From an uncultured Clostridia bacterium (GTDB lineage: Bacteria > Bacillota > Clostridia > Oscillospirales > Ruminococcaceae), in contig CANAQK010000011.1 in assembly GCA_947363605.1 (NCBI GenBank), positions 1-42,522 on the forward strand: a stretch of 42,522 nt of DNA. Reading direction: 5' to 3'. Positions within the stretch are counted from its first letter, which is position 1; every line of letters begins with the position of its first letter. A program made the translations under genes and the position numbers. The notes beneath the pieces are model-generated. The model did not search any database, was not told the origin of the DNA, and saw only the letters and a program-made list of their open reading frames with translations. Positions 2,056 to 30,966 of the stretch are shown one piece after another.

Positions 2056-3513
2056 ATGCTGCAACTGAGAAAAGAGGAACTGGAAAAGATCGATACGGAA
2101 GGGGTTTTGCAGCTCAAAGGACTGGCCGCGCCGGTCCTGAAACGGCGGAAGGAACTCTACCAGCGGTATACCAGGAAAAGAAACCCGTTGGCAATCATGG
2201 GCGCTCCAGGCCCGGAAGAACAGCGAGGGATCCCGTTTGAATATTACATTGCCACCATCGTGCAGGGATATCTGGGCGGGAAAGCCCCGCTTTACCGGGT
2301 ATCCAAACGGAGCGGGGACAATGTGCCGGGCTGGCTCCAGCCGGACGAAGAAGCCGGCGGAATGTCTGATGAAGAGTATGTCCAACAGTATACCGATGTG
2401 ATTGATTATATCCGGCGGTATAATGACGATGGGGCGACCTTTACCGAGCTGATCCATGATTATATTATCACCGGGGCGGCGTATTTGTACATTTACCAAA
2501 ACCAGGCCAAAGAGATCGTCTATACCCGGTCTGACGCGCTCCAGACGGTCGCCATCTATGATTACAGCTCACCCGCCAACCAGATCGGGAGCCTGCGGGT
2601 CTGGGAGCAGTCGGGACTGGACAGCATCGCGCGGCCTTATATGGAACTGATCCTCCCCCGCGGGGCCAGGTTTGTCAAGCGGTTGTATACCGACGAGGGG
2701 GACGGGCTGGCACTCAAGGAGGAGATTCCGATTTATTGGGAGGATATCCCTTTTGTAAGCTTTGAGCAGCCGGATGGAATCGCGGTGTTTGAGGCAGCGA
2801 TCCAGCCGATTGACCTCTATGAGCAGCTTTTGAACAACCTGGCGAATATGACAAAATACAATGACCGGGACGCGAAGCTCCTAATCCGTGGATATGGGGA
2901 TGCACCCCCGTCTGGTACATTGGATCGAAGCCGACTGGACAGGGAACTGCAACAGGCTTATACGATCTTTGTAGGTGAGGGTGGCGAGGTTGAATGGCTC
3001 CTCAAGCAGGTCGATTATGGGGGCGCGCTGGAGGTATCCCGTAATCTGCACGACCTGATTACCATGCTGACCGGGGTTCCCAACCTCACGGACGAGGCCT
3101 TTTCCAACGCGGACAACGCCAGCGCCCTGGGATACAAGCTCTATGCGCTGGATCAGTATTCCGCTGTGGCGGACCGGGTATTCCGCAAGGGCTATTTACG
3201 GCTCTGGGAGATTATCACCGCCCGGCTGAACCAACTGGCCGATCCCCTCAACCGGGGGAAAAAGGTCTTTGATTTCCGGGACGTTTCGGTCGTGATGCAG
3301 CGGAATATCCCAACAGACCGGGATAAAAACATAGAGCGGGCGGTCAAGCTCAAGCAATCCCAGCTGACCTCCCACCAAACGGCGTTGGACGAGGCCGGTC
3401 TGGAATTGGACGCCCTGGAAGAGTTGGGGCGTCTGGAAGAGGAGGAAGCCCGCGAATTTAACCAGGTTGCTGCCCGGAACGGGGATTTGATGGAGGGCGT
3501 ACTGAATGGATGA
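2056..3513 (+). CDS. Portal protein (SPP1 gp6-like)
   Basis: A 485-residue protein of the SPP1-type portal family, which forms the dodecameric ring at the capsid vertex through which DNA enters and leaves. Its length is normal for the family. The EYYIATIVQGYLGGKAP segment near residues 55-75 and the acidic, glutamate-rich tail (LEELGRLEEEEAREF) are typical. It lies 13 bases after the large terminase with a GGGAGGTGA ribosome site and overlaps the next gene by 8 bases. Confidence 0.93.
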   Translation: MLQLRKEELEKIDTEGVLQLKGLAAPVLKRRKELYQRYTRKRNPLAIMGAPGPEEQRGIPFEYYIATIVQGYLGGKAPLYRVSKRSGDNVPGWLQPDEEAGGMSDEEYVQQYTDVIDYIRRYNDDGATFTELIHDYIITGAAYLYIYQNQAKEIVYTRSDALQTVAIYDYSSPANQIGSLRVWEQSGLDSIARPYMELILPRGARFVKRLYTDEGDGLALKEEIPIYWEDIPFVSFEQPDGIAVFEAAIQPIDLYEQLLNNLANMTKYNDRDAKLLIRGYGDAPPSGTLDRSRLDRELQQAYTIFVGEGGEVEWLLKQVDYGGALEVSRNLHDLITMLTGVPNLTDEAFSNADNASALGYKLYALDQYSAVADRVFRKGYLRLWEIITARLNQLADPLNRGKKVFDFRDVSVVMQRNIPTDRDKNIERAVKLKQSQLTSHQTALDEAGLELDALEELGRLEEEEAREFNQVAARNGDLMEGVLNG

Positions 3514-4345
3514 TCGGGAATACGCCGAATATTGGGGCTATGCGGAGAAAGAAGAGGGGAAGCTCCTGCGCTTTTTATCGCGGGAATACGGGATTTTAGC
3601 GGATGATATCGAAGAGCTTGTCCCAATGCTCAAGGCCTTGTCCGACCCGCTGAGCCTGAGCGAAGTCCGCCGGCTGCATCGGCGCGTGAAAAGCTGGCGA
3701 GAGGAGGATAACGGCGATTTCCGGGAGTTGACGCTCTATCTGCGGGACCTGGAAAGGCGGTCCCGCATCCGCAAAAAAGAGGCGGTGTTTGTAATCCTCT
3801 TTGCCATCTATGCCGGGATGTCAAGCAGGCTGATGCGGGAAACAGTGCAGATGCTGGAGCATATCCGGGCGGATACGCTGGCCAAGTATGAGATATCCCG
3901 ATACAGCAAGGTTGATTTTACACAGTTTGAGTTGCCGGATGGCACGATGTTAAAGGGCCAGCTTGGGAATTATGCCTCCTATTCGGCCCGGAGGATGGCA
4001 CAGACGATCCAGCTCGGCGGGAAGTTATCTCCAGTGATTCAGGCGAGCCAGAACCGGATTTTATCCCAGACGAAAGCCGGGCACTACCACGGCTATCTGG
4101 ATCAGGTCACAGCCTCCGTAGTCGGTTACAGCGTGATGGAGGCGCTAAAGCAGACGGGAGCGGGGAAATATCGCTTTATCGCAGTGCTGGACGAGGCGAC
4201 GACGGATATCTGCCGCAGCCTGAACGGTAAAATTTTCCGAGTAGAGGAGATGGAACTGGGCGTGAACGTCCCGCCGATCGTGAAGGATCAGGATGGGCGG
4301 CCTGTCCCGCACCCATGCCGGAGCATGATCCGGATGATCGAATAG
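3506..4345 (+). CDS. Minor head protein (SPP1 gp7-like head morphogenesis)
   Basis: The 279-residue protein ends with the hallmark of the phage head morphogenesis domain: a D-E-x-T-x-D-I-C-R-S-L-N-G element near residue 228 and a final H-P-C-R-S segment. This Cys/His-rich module is known from SPP1 gp7 and Mu gpF. Such proteins sit inside the procapsid near the portal and affect DNA ejection. The start overlaps the portal stop, and the order portal then minor head is standard. Confidence 0.9.
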   Translation: MDDREYAEYWGYAEKEEGKLLRFLSREYGILADDIEELVPMLKALSDPLSLSEVRRLHRRVKSWREEDNGDFRELTLYLRDLERRSRIRKKEAVFVILFAIYAGMSSRLMRETVQMLEHIRADTLAKYEISRYSKVDFTQFELPDGTMLKGQLGNYASYSARRMAQTIQLGGKLSPVIQASQNRILSQTKAGHYHGYLDQVTASVVGYSVMEALKQTGAGKYRFIAVLDEATTDICRSLNGKIFRVEEMELGVNVPPIVKDQDGRPVPHPCRSMIRMIE

Positions 4346-4354
4346 GAGGGGAAT

Positions 4355-4531
4355 ATGGAAAATCCGGAAATTTTAATTGATTACTGCTGCCGGACCTGCA
4401 AGCGGAAGCTTGCGCGGGCTCCGAAAGGGGCTGTGATGGAAATCAAATGCGGCCGATGCAAAGCCCTGAACCTGTTTTTCGGCAACGGATACGCGCCAGG
4501 TAAAAAAAGGGGGGGATCCCCCATGAAATAA
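4355..4531 (+). CDS. Com-like two-knuckle zinc-finger peptide
   Basis: This 58-residue ORF has a good ribosome site (AGGAGGGGAAT) nine bases after the minor head gene. It contains two CxxC pairs (C12-x2-C15 and C32-x2-C35), spaced as a single zinc-ribbon/knuckle, and a basic tail ending KKRGGS. The architecture resembles the Mu Com family, in which Com binds mom mRNA and activates its translation. Here it sits in the head operon immediately before a strong RNA hairpin, so an RNA-binding role is plausible but inferred. The methyltransferase at the left edge may be a relevant partner. Confidence 0.7.
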   Translation: MENPEILIDYCCRTCKRKLARAPKGAVMEIKCGRCKALNLFFGNGYAPGKKRGGSPMK

Positions 4532-5244: not shown

Positions 5245-5580
5245 ATGGCATTTATCAAATATCGGGAAGGAACCTCCTATCCCTCTTTTCTGGCGAGCGA
5301 GGTAGGGATCCGTACCAAAACCCGCCAGATTGAGGAAAGCATGGGGACGGACGGGATCGTAAAGCCCGGGACTATTTACCCCGCAGACGGAGCCGACGCA
5401 GAAGGGCTGGTCTTTGAAACGGTGGATGTATCGTCAGGGGATGTTCCCGGGCCGGTCATGACGGCGGGGGAGGTCTATGAGGACCAGCTCCCGGCAAAGC
5501 CGTCGGAGGCCGCGAAAACGGCCATGCAGAAACTGGGGATGGTTTTCATCCCGACCAAACCAAAAACCGAACGACCATAA
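5245..5580 (+). CDS. Putative head decoration/stabilisation protein
   Basis: A 111-residue protein between scaffold and major capsid, the usual place of the gpD-like decoration protein in lambda-E-type phages. It opens with a strand-rich SEVGIRTKTRQIEES segment and contains repeated Gly/Asp turns (TIYPADGADAEGLVF), consistent with a small beta-tulip fold. I do not recognise a diagnostic motif; the call rests on size, position and composition. The ribosome site is AGAAAGGAG. Confidence 0.6.
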   Translation: MAFIKYREGTSYPSFLASEVGIRTKTRQIEESMGTDGIVKPGTIYPADGADAEGLVFETVDVSSGDVPGPVMTAGEVYEDQLPAKPSEAAKTAMQKLGMVFIPTKPKTERP

Positions 5581-5597
5581 AAAGGGAGTGAAAAAGT

Positions 5598-6731
5598 ATG
5601 CCTAATAAAGAATTTAATGGATTGATCCCTCAGCCGGAATTGTTGGGCTTTTCGCAGGATTTTAAAATTGTGCGCCCGTCGATTAAGGTGGACCCGCTTT
5701 TCCCCGACCGGAAGACGCAAAACCTGCTGGCGGAATATCAGATCATTGCATCAAACGGGCTTTTGCCCACCATGGCGCTCGTCCATGCAATGGACACCGA
5801 AGCGGAGATCGGGAGCCGCCCGGCAATCGACACGGTTATGCTGGAAAAGATGCTGATCAAACGCAAAATCAACACAACCGAGCGGATGGAGATGCTCAAA
5901 AAGCACGCAGGCGTGCCGGATACCGCCCTCAAGCGGTATGTGTTTGACGACGCAAGCCGGCTGATGGAATCGGTCAACCTCCGCACCAAGGTGATGAAAG
6001 CGGAGCTGCTGACCACGGGCAAGCTCACCATCCGGGAAAACAACCTGGATTTTGAGGTGGATTATCGCGTCCCTGCCGAAAACCTGGCGTTTACAGCGGA
6101 TTTCAGCACGGACGACGCTGACCCGGCGGCGCTCTTTAACGAGGTCAATACCTATGCCGGGTCGCTGGGGCTGACGATCAACGGGATCATGACCTCCAGC
6201 AAGATTATGAACCGAATCCGCAGCCTTAAGAGTATGCAGACCATCATTTTAGGCAATGTCGGCGTCGGGGCGCTGGTGCCGAAGGACCGGCTGGAGGCAT
6301 ATCTCTCGGGTGAGTTTGGCTATACCCGCGTGATTATCAACGACGACCAGTATGGGGTGGATGCCAGCGAAAACGGCGTGCAGAAGGTCAAGCGTTATCG
6401 GTATACGCCAGAAAATCATATCAGCTTTTTTGTTGCCAACGCGAGCGGCGCAGTAGGCGAAGGTTTGTGGGGCGTGACCGTTGAAGAGGAGAAAAGCGGC
6501 GCGTTTACTGAGAAATCTATGCGCCAGTTTATCACGATTGCCCAGTGGGAAACCCCCGATCCGCCCGCGACCTGGACAAAGGCGGCCGGGCTGTTTGTAC
6601 CGGTGTTGCCGAACCCGTCCAGCCTGTTCGGAGCGACCATCACCCTGCCGGGGGATTCCGCCTCTGCCGCCTCCCTTCCCGCTAAAAAGTCGGCCCGCGT
6701 AAAAGCCGGAATGGATGAGCTGGATGTATAA
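5598..6731 (+). CDS. Major capsid protein (lambda E family)
   Basis: A 377-residue protein matching the lambda gpE-type major capsid family in length and in motif positions: an LLAEYQIIASNGLLPTMA N-terminal arm, a long helix with KRYVFDDASRLMESVNLRT, a YRVPAENLAF segment and a C-terminal EKSMRQFITIAQWETPDPP. It builds the icosahedral head. Its last bases overlap the start of the next gene in another frame. It is preceded by AAAGGGAGTG. Confidence 0.92.
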   Translation: MPNKEFNGLIPQPELLGFSQDFKIVRPSIKVDPLFPDRKTQNLLAEYQIIASNGLLPTMALVHAMDTEAEIGSRPAIDTVMLEKMLIKRKINTTERMEMLKKHAGVPDTALKRYVFDDASRLMESVNLRTKVMKAELLTTGKLTIRENNLDFEVDYRVPAENLAFTADFSTDDADPAALFNEVNTYAGSLGLTINGIMTSSKIMNRIRSLKSMQTIILGNVGVGALVPKDRLEAYLSGEFGYTRVIINDDQYGVDASENGVQKVKRYRYTPENHISFFVANASGAVGEGLWGVTVEEEKSGAFTEKSMRQFITIAQWETPDPPATWTKAAGLFVPVLPNPSSLFGATITLPGDSASAASLPAKKSARVKAGMDELDV

Positions 6732-8334: not shown

Positions 8335-8796
8335 ATGGCAGAATTTAATCCGGCTCTAACACCACCACGGTCAACGGCACGTACAGAGCTGTATTATGCG
8401 ATTACCGAGGATACCAACCTGAAACAGGTTTTCGGGGTGCAGGACATCCCAACTGTCGATACACCGCCTGAAGATATCACCTATCGAACGCTGGAATCCA
8501 GCACCGAATTTGCTGTCCCCGGCGTAAGGCCCTATGAAACGATACAGGTACCTGTAATATATTACGAAGAACAGTTTGAAGAAATGCGAAAAGCTAACGA
8601 AAACGGCGACCTCTGGTGGTATGTTAAACTGCCGGACGCAACCTCCCCAACTGGAACTAATCCAATTGTAATCAAGTGGAGAGGCGCGCTTTCGGTAAGC
8701 GTAGATGGGATTGAATTAGATAATATGCTTCAGAAAATGTTGACCATAGGAAAATCAACTGTTCCTGAAATCATTAAGGGCCTGCCCACTGCATAA
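8335..8796 (+). CDS. Major tail (tube) protein
   Basis: A 153-residue protein that should form the stacked hexameric tail tube. It shows the expected beta-rich pattern with a YRTLESSTEFAVPG loop and a conserved-looking WWYVKLPD segment. It is located between the neck genes and the tail chaperones. ATG 8335 follows AAGGAGTGAACAG and is preferred to the in-frame GTG at 8326, which lies inside the ribosome site. This gene is noticeably more AT-rich than the genes around it. Confidence 0.8.
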   Translation: MAEFNPALTPPRSTARTELYYAITEDTNLKQVFGVQDIPTVDTPPEDITYRTLESSTEFAVPGVRPYETIQVPVIYYEEQFEEMRKANENGDLWWYVKLPDATSPTGTNPIVIKWRGALSVSVDGIELDNMLQKMLTIGKSTVPEIIKGLPTA

Positions 8797-28686: not shown

Positions 28687-28712
28687 TTTTTTACATCCTC
28701 TCAGATTTTTGT

Positions 28713-28804
28713 GTTGTGGTTGATTTAGTGTTTGGTCATTTGCTATGGTCTTATTATATACCATAAAAAGCGTATTGTCAATACTTTTTACGCTAAATTT
28801 AGCG
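28713..28804 (-). promoter_or_regulatory. Leftward promoter/operator, copy 1 of a 92-bp repeat
   Basis: Leftward TTGACA (28781-28776), a 17-bp spacer and TATAAT (28758-28753). Upstream lies a perfect palindrome CGCTAAATTTAGCG (28791-28804), and the -35 box sits inside GTATTG-A-CAATAC, a second inverted repeat. The 92 bp appear identical to 30380-30471. The Xre-type product encoded nearby is a candidate ligand. Confidence 0.88.
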
Positions 28805-28820
28805 CAAAAAGTAAAAAATA

Positions 28821-28880: not shown

Positions 28881-29357
28881 TTAGTCATCCTTGTCAATCA
28901 GCGTCCGAATATCTACACCGATTGCATCGGCGAGAGCTAAGAGGTTACGGGCGGACATATTACCGGCAAAGGTTCTGCCCGCCTCGATAGACTGGATTTG
29001 GCGGCTGTATACGCCGGATGCGTCTGATAACTGTTTGACTGTCAGACCCGCAGCCAGCCTGGCTTCCCGCAAAGGGACAACATATCCATCTCTTGGGGCC
29101 TGTTTGACCACCCGGCGGCGGGTGGCGCTGACAGCAAAGACGATGGATCTCCTTGAGCCGCCAAGGCATAGAGATACATACTCACCCATCTCATCGTAGA
29201 TGGCAGGCTCCCCAGAGTGTGTCTCGCCAAGTGTGTAATTTTGCGGCAACACAAGTCGTAAGTCCGTGTAGATGACATCATCATCTGGTCTGCGCAATAC
29301 GATATTGTCAATCTCGTTAGAGGATGCGGCCCTCACCTGGTATGCGTAGATAATCAT
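28881..29357 (-). CDS. Xre-family regulator with N-terminal unknown domain
   Basis: A 158-residue protein. Residues 1-95 are a beta-rich domain with no motif I recognise (MIIYAYQVRAASSNEIDNIV...YVSLCLGG). Residues about 100-158 are a complete Xre/Cro helix-turn-helix (LREARLAAGLTVKQLSDASG-VYSRQIQSIEAGR...NLLALADAIGV). It is last in the operon with the pentapeptide protein. The position of an HTH gene at the end of an operon of small phage proteins, with palindromic operators in the promoter, is the layout of anti-CRISPR-associated (Aca) repressors. An in-frame TTG at 29363 is an alternative start. Confidence 0.8.
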   Translation of the reverse strand: MIIYAYQVRAASSNEIDNIVLRRPDDDVIYTDLRLVLPQNYTLGETHSGEPAIYDEMGEYVSLCLGGSRRSIVFAVSATRRRVVKQAPRDGYVVPLREARLAAGLTVKQLSDASGVYSRQIQSIEAGRTFAGNMSARNLLALADAIGVDIRTLIDKDD

Positions 29358-29376
29358 TGTCAACTAGTCCTCCTGA

Positions 29377-29995: not shown

Positions 29996-30352
29996 TTAAG
30001 CATACTTAACACACAGGGCGTTCAGGACTTCACGGCTGCCAGTCCAAGCCTTTTTTTCACTGTCCCATACCAGCCCCCACTCACGCATCACCTGACGAGC
30101 AGGGTAAGTGTTGCCGGTAATGGCTAGATTATCCATATCAACGTTAACCAGGATTGGGTGCATCAGAGTGCCAGCAACTTTGACGTTGTGTACGATACCT
30201 GCAAACACACGAGCATCCTCTTTAGCCTTTGCCCAAGCCCGCCGGAGGCAGTCTGCAAAACTGAGGGGAGATACCCATTTGCGAGAGATACGATGCAGAT
30301 TCCAAGCGTCCCGCATAATGTTTGATAAGTTATATTTTTTGTTGGTTGTCAT
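29996..30352 (-). CDS. Small phage protein with WD-x-KAW (DUF5710-like) C-terminus
   Basis: A 118-residue protein. The N-terminus (NLSNIMRDAWNLHRISRKW...SFADCLRRAWAKAKEDARV) is a helical module common in Firmicute mobile elements. The C-terminus (LAITGNTYPARQVMREWGLVWDSEKKAWTG) has the small beta-alpha pattern of DUF5710-like domains. It is the first gene after promoter copy 2. The ribosome region AAAGGATGTATTAAA is shared with its neighbours. Function unknown. Confidence 0.75.
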   Translation of the reverse strand: MTTNKKYNLSNIMRDAWNLHRISRKWVSPLSFADCLRRAWAKAKEDARVFAGIVHNVKVAGTLMHPILVNVDMDNLAITGNTYPARQVMREWGLVWDSEKKAWTGSREVLNALCVKYA

Positions 30353-30379
30353 TTTAATACATCCTTTCAGCTTTTTGGC

Positions 30380-30471
30380 GTTGTGGTTGATTTAGTGTTT
30401 GGTCATTTGCTATGGTCTTATTATATACCATAAAAAGCGTATTGTCAATACTTTTTACGCTAAATTTAGCG
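30380..30471 (-). promoter_or_regulatory. Leftward promoter/operator, copy 2 of a 92-bp repeat
   Basis: Leftward TTGACA (30448-30443), a 17-bp spacer and TATAAT (30425-30420), with palindrome CGCTAAATTTAGCG at 30458-30471. By eye it is identical over 92 bp to 28713-28804, covering operator, promoter and the start of the mRNA. The two units should therefore respond to the same regulator. Confidence 0.9.
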
Positions 30472-30535
30472 TAAAAGGTAAAAATATTTACCGGGGATTA
30501 TCTATATACCATTATAAATAAGGATTTTTTGCTTG

Positions 30536-30564
30536 TTGACAATCCGAATTTTTTATGGTATAAA
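30536..30564 (+). promoter_or_regulatory. Promoter of the short noncoding transcript
   Basis: TTGACA (30536-30541), a 17-bp spacer and TATAAA (30559-30564), facing right. Its sequence around both boxes (TTGACAAT, TTTTTATGGTATA) resembles the leftward promoter copies, suggesting a common origin, but it lacks the CGCTAAATTTAGCG palindrome, so its control may differ. Confidence 0.85.
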
Positions 30565-30570
30565 AGAGTT

Positions 30571-30699
30571 GTCACATCGTAGATGGTCACTCAGATACGG
30601 TGTTGTGGATTGAAATAATGATGGGTAAACGCAAAACGGCTTATAGCTGCTATGCAGGACCCGGAAAAAGCCGTTGCGACCGCAGCGGCTTTTTCTTTT
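30571..30699 (+). ncRNA. Short RNA with a solitary subtype I-C CRISPR-repeat-like unit
   Basis: The predicted transcript starts near 30571 and ends at the terminator near 30699, about 129 nt, with no credible ORF. Bases 30586-30616 begin GTCAC and end GTGGATTGAAAT over 31 nt. These match the conserved 5' and 3' ends and the length (usually 31-33) of subtype I-C repeats. The interior stem is weak (CACT with GGTG). GTCAC also occurs at 30571. A single repeat-like unit with its own promoter and terminator in a phage is the form of RNA anti-CRISPRs (Racr), which bind Cas proteins in place of crRNA. A c4-type antisense RNA or attenuator is an alternative. Confidence 0.5.
30665..30697 (+). terminator. 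Terminator of the short RNA
   Basis: AAAAAGCCGTTGC (30665-30677) pairs with GCAGCGGCTTTTT (30682-30694), 13 bp with one G:T pair and a GACC loop, followed by CTTTT. An alternative 8-bp helix, AACGGCTT (30635-30642) with AAGCCGTT (30668-30675), is mutually exclusive with it. Confidence 0.9.
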
Positions 30700-30851: not shown

Positions 30852-30888
30852 AAAAAGCTAGGTAAACACTGAGTTTACCTAGCTTTTT
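30852..30888. terminator. Bidirectional terminator next to tRNA-Pro
   Basis: Two perfect 16-base arms, AAAAAGCTAGGTAAAC and its complement, around a five-base loop. It ends two bases before the CCA end of the leftward tRNA gene, so it terminates that tRNA and insulates the prophage. Confidence 0.93.
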
Positions 30889-30890
30889 AC

Positions 30891-30966
30891 TGGTCGGAGT
30901 GACGGGACTTGAACCCACGGCCTCTTGACCCCCAGTCAAGCGCGCTACCAGCTGCGCCACACCCCG
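30891..30966 (-). tRNA. tRNA-Pro (anticodon GGG), CCA encoded; likely attachment site
   Basis: Read leftward from 30966, a 7-bp acceptor stem (CGGGGTG/CACTCCG with one G:T pair), a D arm, an anticodon stem CTTGA/TCAAG with loop CTGGGGG (anticodon GGG), a T arm with TTCAAGT, discriminator A and encoded CCA. The 3' end faces the prophage, the usual geometry when a phage integrates into a tRNA gene and restores its 3' part. The matching core at the other prophage end is outside the window. Confidence 0.96.

What the first reader, a model, noticed from the sequence alone, without database searches (positions are those of the whole stretch)
30536..30699. Solitary CRISPR-repeat-like RNA unit at the prophage end: candidate RNA anti-CRISPR (Racr)
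A strong promoter (TTGACA-N17-TATAAA) and a 13-bp terminator bracket a ~129-nt unit with no ORF. Bases 30586-30616 begin GTCAC and end GTGGATTGAAAT over 31 nt. Those two ends and that length are conserved features of subtype I-C CRISPR repeats, while the inner stem is degenerate. There is no second repeat and no cas gene in view. Phages are known to carry solitary repeat units that make non-functional crRNA mimics, titrating or misassembling Cas complexes. A 12-base match such as GTGGATTGAAAT is expected by chance in well under one in ten windows of this size, and its placement inside a stand-alone transcription unit makes chance less likely still. Interpretation as Racr is inference.
Basis: partly seen in the sequence, partly recalled or inferred. 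Interest (0 to 1): 0.85.

Follow-up and report, generated by a model that had tools for sequence, protein, structure and literature searches.

The report
Prophage RNA mimicking a CRISPR repeat
A prophage carries a tiny stand-alone RNA gene that imitates one repeat of its host's CRISPR immune system, which holds exact spacers against that same prophage, so the RNA probably acts as a decoy that jams the immune complex.

Summary
The unit is promoter, hairpin, GTGGATTGAAAT, 46 nt, terminator; its repeat-like register starts at 30571, the predicted +1, not at 30586. The host genome encodes one complete type I-C operon whose array repeats end in the same 12 bases; the window copy is the only exact copy outside host arrays. 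Two host spacers match this prophage perfectly, each with a TTC PAM, so an inhibitor is expected on it.

A strict search for the same layout, stem sequence left free, found 12 loci; 11 are solitary units. Some are host CreR-like regulators with a TTC-flanked target beside cas genes; others lie on phages. The window unit has no such target, so I read it as a handle-bearing decoy crRNA: it works like a Racr, has CreR-like architecture, and against the host repeat falls below the published SRUFinder thresholds.

Expression and inhibition are not shown. A weakly AcrIIA3-like gene lies about 200 bp away, so proteins may share the job. In passing: one phage unit, in a Ruminococcus MAG, carries a near copy of its host's own CreR-like guide.

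The parts
30536..30564 (+). promoter TTGACA-17-TATAAA of the RNA unit
   Evidence: sequence; resembles the two minus-strand operon promoters
30571..30699 (+). predicted RNA, +1 at GUC, to the end of the U-tract
   Evidence: 6 nt from the -10; layout shared with other units; fold z -4.1
30574..30603 (+). repeat-like hairpin
   Evidence: folds at -11.2 kcal/mol; 2% of 100 shuffles do as well
30605..30616 (+). 3' end of a type I-C repeat (12 nt); predicted 11-nt handle from 30606
   Evidence: identical to the host repeat end; 11-nt handle from PMC5965380 passages
30617..30662 (+). tail (pseudo-spacer), no target found
30664..30699 (+). terminator: 15-nt arms and U-tract
3367..3402 (-). protospacer of host spacer 11, in the portal gene, PAM TTC
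   Evidence: 36/36
4187..4221 (-). protospacer of host spacer 2, in a minor head gene, PAM TTC
   Evidence: 35/35
29996..30352 (-). 118-aa protein, first gene of the divergent operon, weakly AcrIIA3-like at its N-terminus
   Evidence: NF033948 E 1.5e-4, 21.8 bits against a cut-off of 70
28881..29363 (-). HTH protein, Aca-like by position only
   Evidence: PF01381 E 3e-7
30449..30480 (.). operator-like palindrome, second copy at 28782-28813
30884..30966 (-). tRNA-Pro, presumed attachment site
   Evidence: ARAGORN 30891-30966; homology with G006 starts at 30884

Best explanation
[quoted passage not shown] it works like a Racr. Shown: the sequence layout, the host I-C operon with the same repeat end, two perfect self-targeting spacers, and other loci of the same layout. 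Inferred: the RNA starts at GUC (30571); host Cas5 binds the hairpin and cuts after 30605; the hairpin piece can hold one Cas5; the downstream piece (11-nt handle, 46 nt, terminator hairpin) is taken up as a false crRNA without a target and ties up Cas5, Cas8 and Cas7. With almost no RNA upstream of the repeat, the inhibitory product should be this handle-bearing downstream piece, unlike in RacrIF1.
For: Host I-C operon, all seven cas genes open and matching I-C profiles, one Csd1. The repeat end occurs in the genome only in arrays and here. Spacers 2 and 11 match this prophage perfectly with TTC and are the only perfect spacer matches outside arrays. Strict layout pattern: 6 viral and 6 genome loci, 11 of 12 solitary units, each with a hairpin behind the handle although the pattern does not ask for one; a reversed pattern and a 7-nt spacing gave 0 in viral contigs. 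Phage units L222 and L224 lie in genomes with Csd1. Promoter-paired divergent operon with a weakly AcrIIA3-like protein and an HTH protein. A plain non-targeting crRNA also reduces I-F interference (PMC10651486, section 7).
Against: No RNA or inhibition data. Stem sequence unlike the host repeat: BLAST 12 of 33 positions, 24.3 bits, below the SRUFinder limits. No close homologue, so no covariation. In the other units the 5' hairpin is often weak: only 5 of 13 reach 5% of shuffles. In the published RacrIF1 a handle-only RNA was not inhibitory. The genome is a draft, possibly a strain mixture, so self-targeting may be only apparent; a MITE-like insert lies in the host's cas3-cas5 gap, read by eye. 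Protein inhibitors nearby could explain the self-targeting.
Confidence: 0.7

Rival explanations
1. It is a guide: a CreR- or CreA-type RNA that leads Cascade, by partial pairing, to a promoter (cas genes, a toxin, another element) and represses it.
For: Same layout as host CreR-like units L220, L223, L225 and the L232 unit; phage unit L224 does carry a cas-directed guide; the 46-nt tail is long enough and starts with A like the others.
Against: Own cas locus 9 of 15, matched by 72.5% of 200 shuffles; window 11 of 15, matched by 13% of 100; 13 cas loci 8-10 of 15; own genome one near-seed hit against 2 in the control; 0 in viral contigs. About 5% of the genome is missing.
Confidence: 0.12
2. 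Proteins of the divergent operon are the anti-CRISPR, and the unit is an ordinary phage small RNA (for example antisense to the HTH mRNA) whose 12-base match is chance.
For: AcrIIA3-like N-terminus; 14 of 15 bases of 30572-30586 recur at 29189-29203 inside the HTH gene; the 12-mer alone is expected about 0.27 times per genome (arithmetic).
Against: The strict layout met here had 0 chance hits in the reversed control over viral contigs, and the host repeat end matches exactly.
Confidence: 0.13
3. It is a decayed remnant of a phage mini-array or captured array end, not functional.
For: Five of the 14 units of the loose search show a second repeat-like stretch nearby, by eye (L164, L168, L174, L189, L201).
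Against: No second repeat in the window; promoter, stem and terminator intact.
Confidence: 0.05

Closest known systems
Racr, RNA anti-CRISPR from a solitary repeat unit (RacrIF1, RacrIC1; PMC10651486, sections 5, 7, 9-12, 30 and passages)
   Same: Prophage-encoded, solitary, repeat-like hairpin RNA with its own promoter, host with the matching subtype, possible acr neighbour
   Different: Stem hardly resembles the host repeat; RNA starts at the repeat itself; RacrIF1 acts through RNA upstream of the cut, and RacrIC1 is co-transcribed behind acrIC5
CreR, cas-regulating RNA (passages in PMC13131331 and PMC12737573; primary papers not held)
   Same: Promoter directly against a single degenerate repeat, short tail, terminator; several host units found here have exactly this layout
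   Different: On a prophage, not beside cas genes; no promoter target with PAM found
CreA of CreTA/CrePA (passages in PMC12737573)
   Same: crRNA-like RNA with one degenerate repeat
   Different: No toxin promoter target found in the window

Membership tests
Racr / solitary repeat unit | Encoded in a virus or prophage | tested here: met
   Phage structural and lysis genes to the left, tRNA-Pro boundary at 30884
Racr / solitary repeat unit | No further repeat nearby | tested here: met
   One match with up to 1 mismatch in the window
Racr / solitary repeat unit | Secondary structure like the cognate repeat | tested here: met
   3-nt overhang, stem, 3' single strand; but longer stem with an internal loop and one extra U
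Racr / solitary repeat unit | SRUFinder limits: identity and coverage of at least 90%, 41.1 bits | tested here: not met
   Host repeat: 12 of 33 positions, 24.3 bits (limits). The 17,823-repeat library itself was not searched. This is a search criterion, not the functional definition
Racr / solitary repeat unit | Host has the matching CRISPR subtype | tested here: met
   Complete I-C operon and array
Racr / solitary repeat unit | acr gene within 1 kb (enriched, not required) | tested here: inconclusive
   AcrIIA3-like hit below cut-off
Racr / solitary repeat unit | RNA is made, binds Cas proteins and inhibits | not testable with these tools
   Needs bench work
CreR | Lies beside the cas operon | tested here: not met
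   On the prophage contig C11; cas operon on C85
CreR | Tail partly matches the cas promoter next to a PAM | tested here: not met
   9 of 15 in own locus, like shuffles; positive controls 14-15 of 15
CreA (CreTA, CrePA) | Target in the promoter of a nearby toxin | tested here: not met
   Best TTC site in the window 11 of 15, reached by 13% of shuffles

The most novel reading that the evidence does not exclude
Phages of gut Clostridia carry a class of leaderless type I-C repeat-mimic RNAs modelled on, or taken from, the host's own Cas-regulating RNA rather than array repeats. Some keep the host guide and would turn Cascade against the cas promoter (L224); others, like the window unit, have a blank tail and act as decoys through a handle-bearing piece, by a route different from RacrIF1.
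Probability: 0.4. Interest if true: 0.82.

Novelty: new variant of a known kind. Interest (0 to 1): 0.72.

Why it matters
RNA anti-CRISPRs have been searched for by close similarity to known repeats. If units with a free stem but fixed promoter spacing, GUC, stem and handle are real, such a search misses them, and the layout used here gives a direct way to list them. The window adds a natural test: a lysogen whose own array targets its prophage twice. The L224 case suggests that phages can copy the host's CRISPR self-regulator, which would link anti-CRISPR RNAs to cas regulation.

Tried and rejected
Close relatives: the exact 21-mer from the handle into the tail has 0 matches in viral contigs and genome contigs (records very near the window's genome may be left out there). 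BLAST of 235 bases in 198 genomes: 187 have some match at E up to 1, but the listed ones (list truncated) are short pieces, best non-self E 4.4e-7 over 42 nt, mostly promoter or terminator; the few over the handle or tail include L030, an ordinary array, and L027, which has no handle. None of the 29 loci L004-L032 holds GTGGATTGAAA except that array; my first look at 16 of them showed mainly one side. Phage records: one 62-nt Microviridae piece. Neighbour proteins as bait: 1 weak relative, none.

Guide function: no target. The one near-seed hit in the own genome, C5:56713, looks coding by eye; not tested. L110 has a weak match in its host's cas region (10 of 15, reached by 19% of 100 shuffles): inconclusive. 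L222 has none (10 of 15, 65%).

From 157 hits I dropped loci with more than 2 handles and repeated upstream sequences; of the 95 left, 14 (window included; L065 and L085 nearly identical) have GTC plus an adjacent stem, against 0.4 expected from mononucleotide shuffles. In 396 family genomes 40 matched, mostly arrays; the reversed control hit 5 by my count.

Antisense pairing with the HTH mRNA was noted, not tested.

Full report
WHAT IS THERE. The window is one whole contig (C11, 42,522 bases) of an unnamed 2.22-Mb genome in 133 contigs, 94.94% complete. From its left end to about 30,884 it is the right part of a prophage: terminase, portal, minor head, capsid, tape measure, tail, endolysin. 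Homology with genus relatives begins at 30,884-30,891, at the 3' end of a tRNA-Pro gene, the presumed attachment site. The unit lies about 200 bases inside that end: TTGACA-17-TATAAA, six bases, GUC at the expected +1 (30571), a hairpin (30574-30603), U, GUGGAUUGAAAU (30605-30616), 46 bases, and a terminator.

THE HOST. The same genome has one complete type I-C operon on C85 (cas3, 5, 8c, 7, 4, 1, 2, all open) and 18 repeats on C95, GTCGCTCCCCGCACGGGGAGCGTGGATTGAAAT. GTGGATTGAAAT occurs 20 times in the genome: 18 in that array, once at an array edge on C85, once here. The genus relative G006 has a 95% identical cas locus and the same repeat.

SELF-TARGETING. Of 17 spacers read (14 distinct: 12-14 recur as 15-17), spacer 2 matches window 4187-4221 at 35/35 and spacer 11 matches 3367-3402 at 36/36; both protospacers are preceded by TTC. 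Outside arrays these are the only perfect spacer matches in the genome; the next best is 20 nt at 95%. Spacer 1 matches 8622-8657 at 27/36 behind TTA. That TTC is the I-C PAM is recalled, but the CreR-like targets below show it too. A cell with active I-C should not tolerate this prophage, so an inhibitor is expected on it. The draft may mix strains, and the array part between C85 and C95 is not assembled.

THE LAYOUT IS SHARED. A strict pattern (TTGA, 18-20, TATAAW, exactly 6, GTC, 14-36, GTGGATTGAAAY) found 6 viral and 6 genome loci. L221 is an ordinary array. The other 11 have no other GTGGATTGAAA within 600 nt (L220 and L225 have repeats kilobases away); they make 8 distinct units with unrelated stems (L085 and L162 go with L065, L222 with L217). 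The reversed pattern (Y fixed as T) and a 7-nt spacing gave 0 in viral contigs (not run in genome contigs). The pattern asks for no terminator, yet all 13 units folded (window, these 8, L110, three host units) have a strong hairpin 7-49 nt behind the handle, tail z -3.1 to -9.6 (four rows, three duplicates and the array, left out). Against the reading: the 5' hairpin reaches 5% of shuffles in only 5 of 13 (window 2%), and the L232 host unit folds into none. The base after the handle is A in 9 of 9 distinct strict units (window included); after array repeats it is A in 341 of 879.

TWO KINDS. L220 and L223 lie between cas3 and cas5, L225 just before cas5, pointing the other way (cas names by eye, Csd1 by Pfam). 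Their tails have a TTC-flanked partial target in the same gap, sixth base mismatched in all three, 14-15 of 15 core bases, 0 of 200 shuffles each. They behave as CreR, which a review gives for I-B, I-E and V-A (passage). The G056 and G437 units near Csd1 have such sites too (14 of 15; no shuffles run). L065/L085/L162, L217/L222 (Cuneatibacter), L219 and L224 lie with phage or integrase genes; L218 was not searched. HTH-like genes, all below NCBIfam cut-offs, lie within about 1 kb of the units in L162, L219, L222 and L224. Csd1 is in 5 of 5 genomes of L220 and L222-L225, but three of those units sit in the cas locus itself. Of 13 family genomes picked for unit-like hits 10 have Csd1, of 7 genus relatives 3.

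PHAGE COPY OF A HOST CreR. L224, on a contig with holin, endolysins and a DNA methyltransferase, has a tail that matches a TTC site just before cas5 in its own genome, 17 of the first 18 bases, 0 of 200 shuffles. From the handle on it is 34 of 35 bases identical to the host's own CreR-like unit there, while the hairpins differ. I saw no phage-encoded CreR in the passages read or the search listings; the primary CreR papers are not held, so this does not prove novelty.

THE WINDOW UNIT HAS NO TARGET SO FAR. The same scan gives 9 of 15 in the own cas locus (72.5% of 200 shuffles do as well), 11 of 15 in the window (13% of 100), 8-10 of 15 in 13 cas loci, one near-seed hit in the genome against 2 in the control, and 0 in viral contigs for a 22-letter PAM and seed pattern. 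I therefore favour a decoy over a guide.

MECHANISM. In I-C, Cas5 leaves an 11-nt 5' handle, a 33-nt spacer and a 21-nt 3' hairpin piece; one Cas5 stays on the hairpin, a second presumably on the handle (PMC5965380, passages). The unit would give a hairpin piece (30571-30605) and a piece of about 92 nt with handle, tail and terminator hairpin. RacrIF1 works through RNA upstream of the cut, and a handle-only RNA was not inhibitory (PMC10651486). Here almost nothing lies upstream, so the handle-bearing piece should be the inhibitor; in the same paper a non-targeting crRNA also reduced interference. All this is inference.

NEIGHBOURS. The divergent operon starts with a 118-aa protein weakly AcrIIA3-like (21.8 bits, cut-off 70), then a pentapeptide-repeat and an HTH protein; its promoter region and an operator-like palindrome occur twice, and the unit's promoter resembles them. 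This looks like an anti-CRISPR locus, but proteins may then share or do the job.

VERDICT. Known in kind (works like a Racr), unusual in form (leaderless, CreR-like layout, stem unlike the host repeat) and in setting (double self-targeting). Confidence 0.7 that it inhibits I-C as a repeat mimic.

Noticed in passing
L224:366-438 (-) and L232 about 4340-4390 (-): A phage unit carries a guide 34 of 35 bases identical (handle included) to its host's CreR-like RNA, directed at a TTC site before cas5: a candidate phage mimic of a Cas-regulating RNA.
   Followed up: partly
L220:5709-5774, L223:3325-3389, L225:127-198, G056:C2:8393, G437:C25:8917: CreR-like units at type I-C cas loci with TTC-flanked partial targets; the reviews seen name I-B, I-E and V-A.
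   Followed up: partly
window 28706-28817 and 30373-30484: Two 96% identical promoter regions, each with the palindrome TACTTTTTACGCTAAATTTAGCG..., in front of two minus-strand operons.
   Followed up: partly
L033 about 5535-5695: MITE-like insert with terminal AGAACCTGTATG repeats in the host's cas3-cas5 gap, read by eye; shared with G006.
   Followed up: no
L034 (G000:C4:60000-65201): Apparent broken second cas locus: a stretch like a Cas3 HD domain by eye, a Cas1 fragment of 22.7 bits.
   Followed up: no
L055:785-1240: Array spacers 12-14 recur in order as 15-17: a duplication or an assembly artefact.
   Followed up: no
window 30572-30586 and 29189-29203: 14 of 15 bases shared between the unit's 5' arm and the HTH gene on the other strand; possible pairing with its mRNA.
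   Followed up: no
base after GTGGATTGAAAY in 9 distinct strict units: Always A, against 341 of 879 after array repeats.
   Followed up: no
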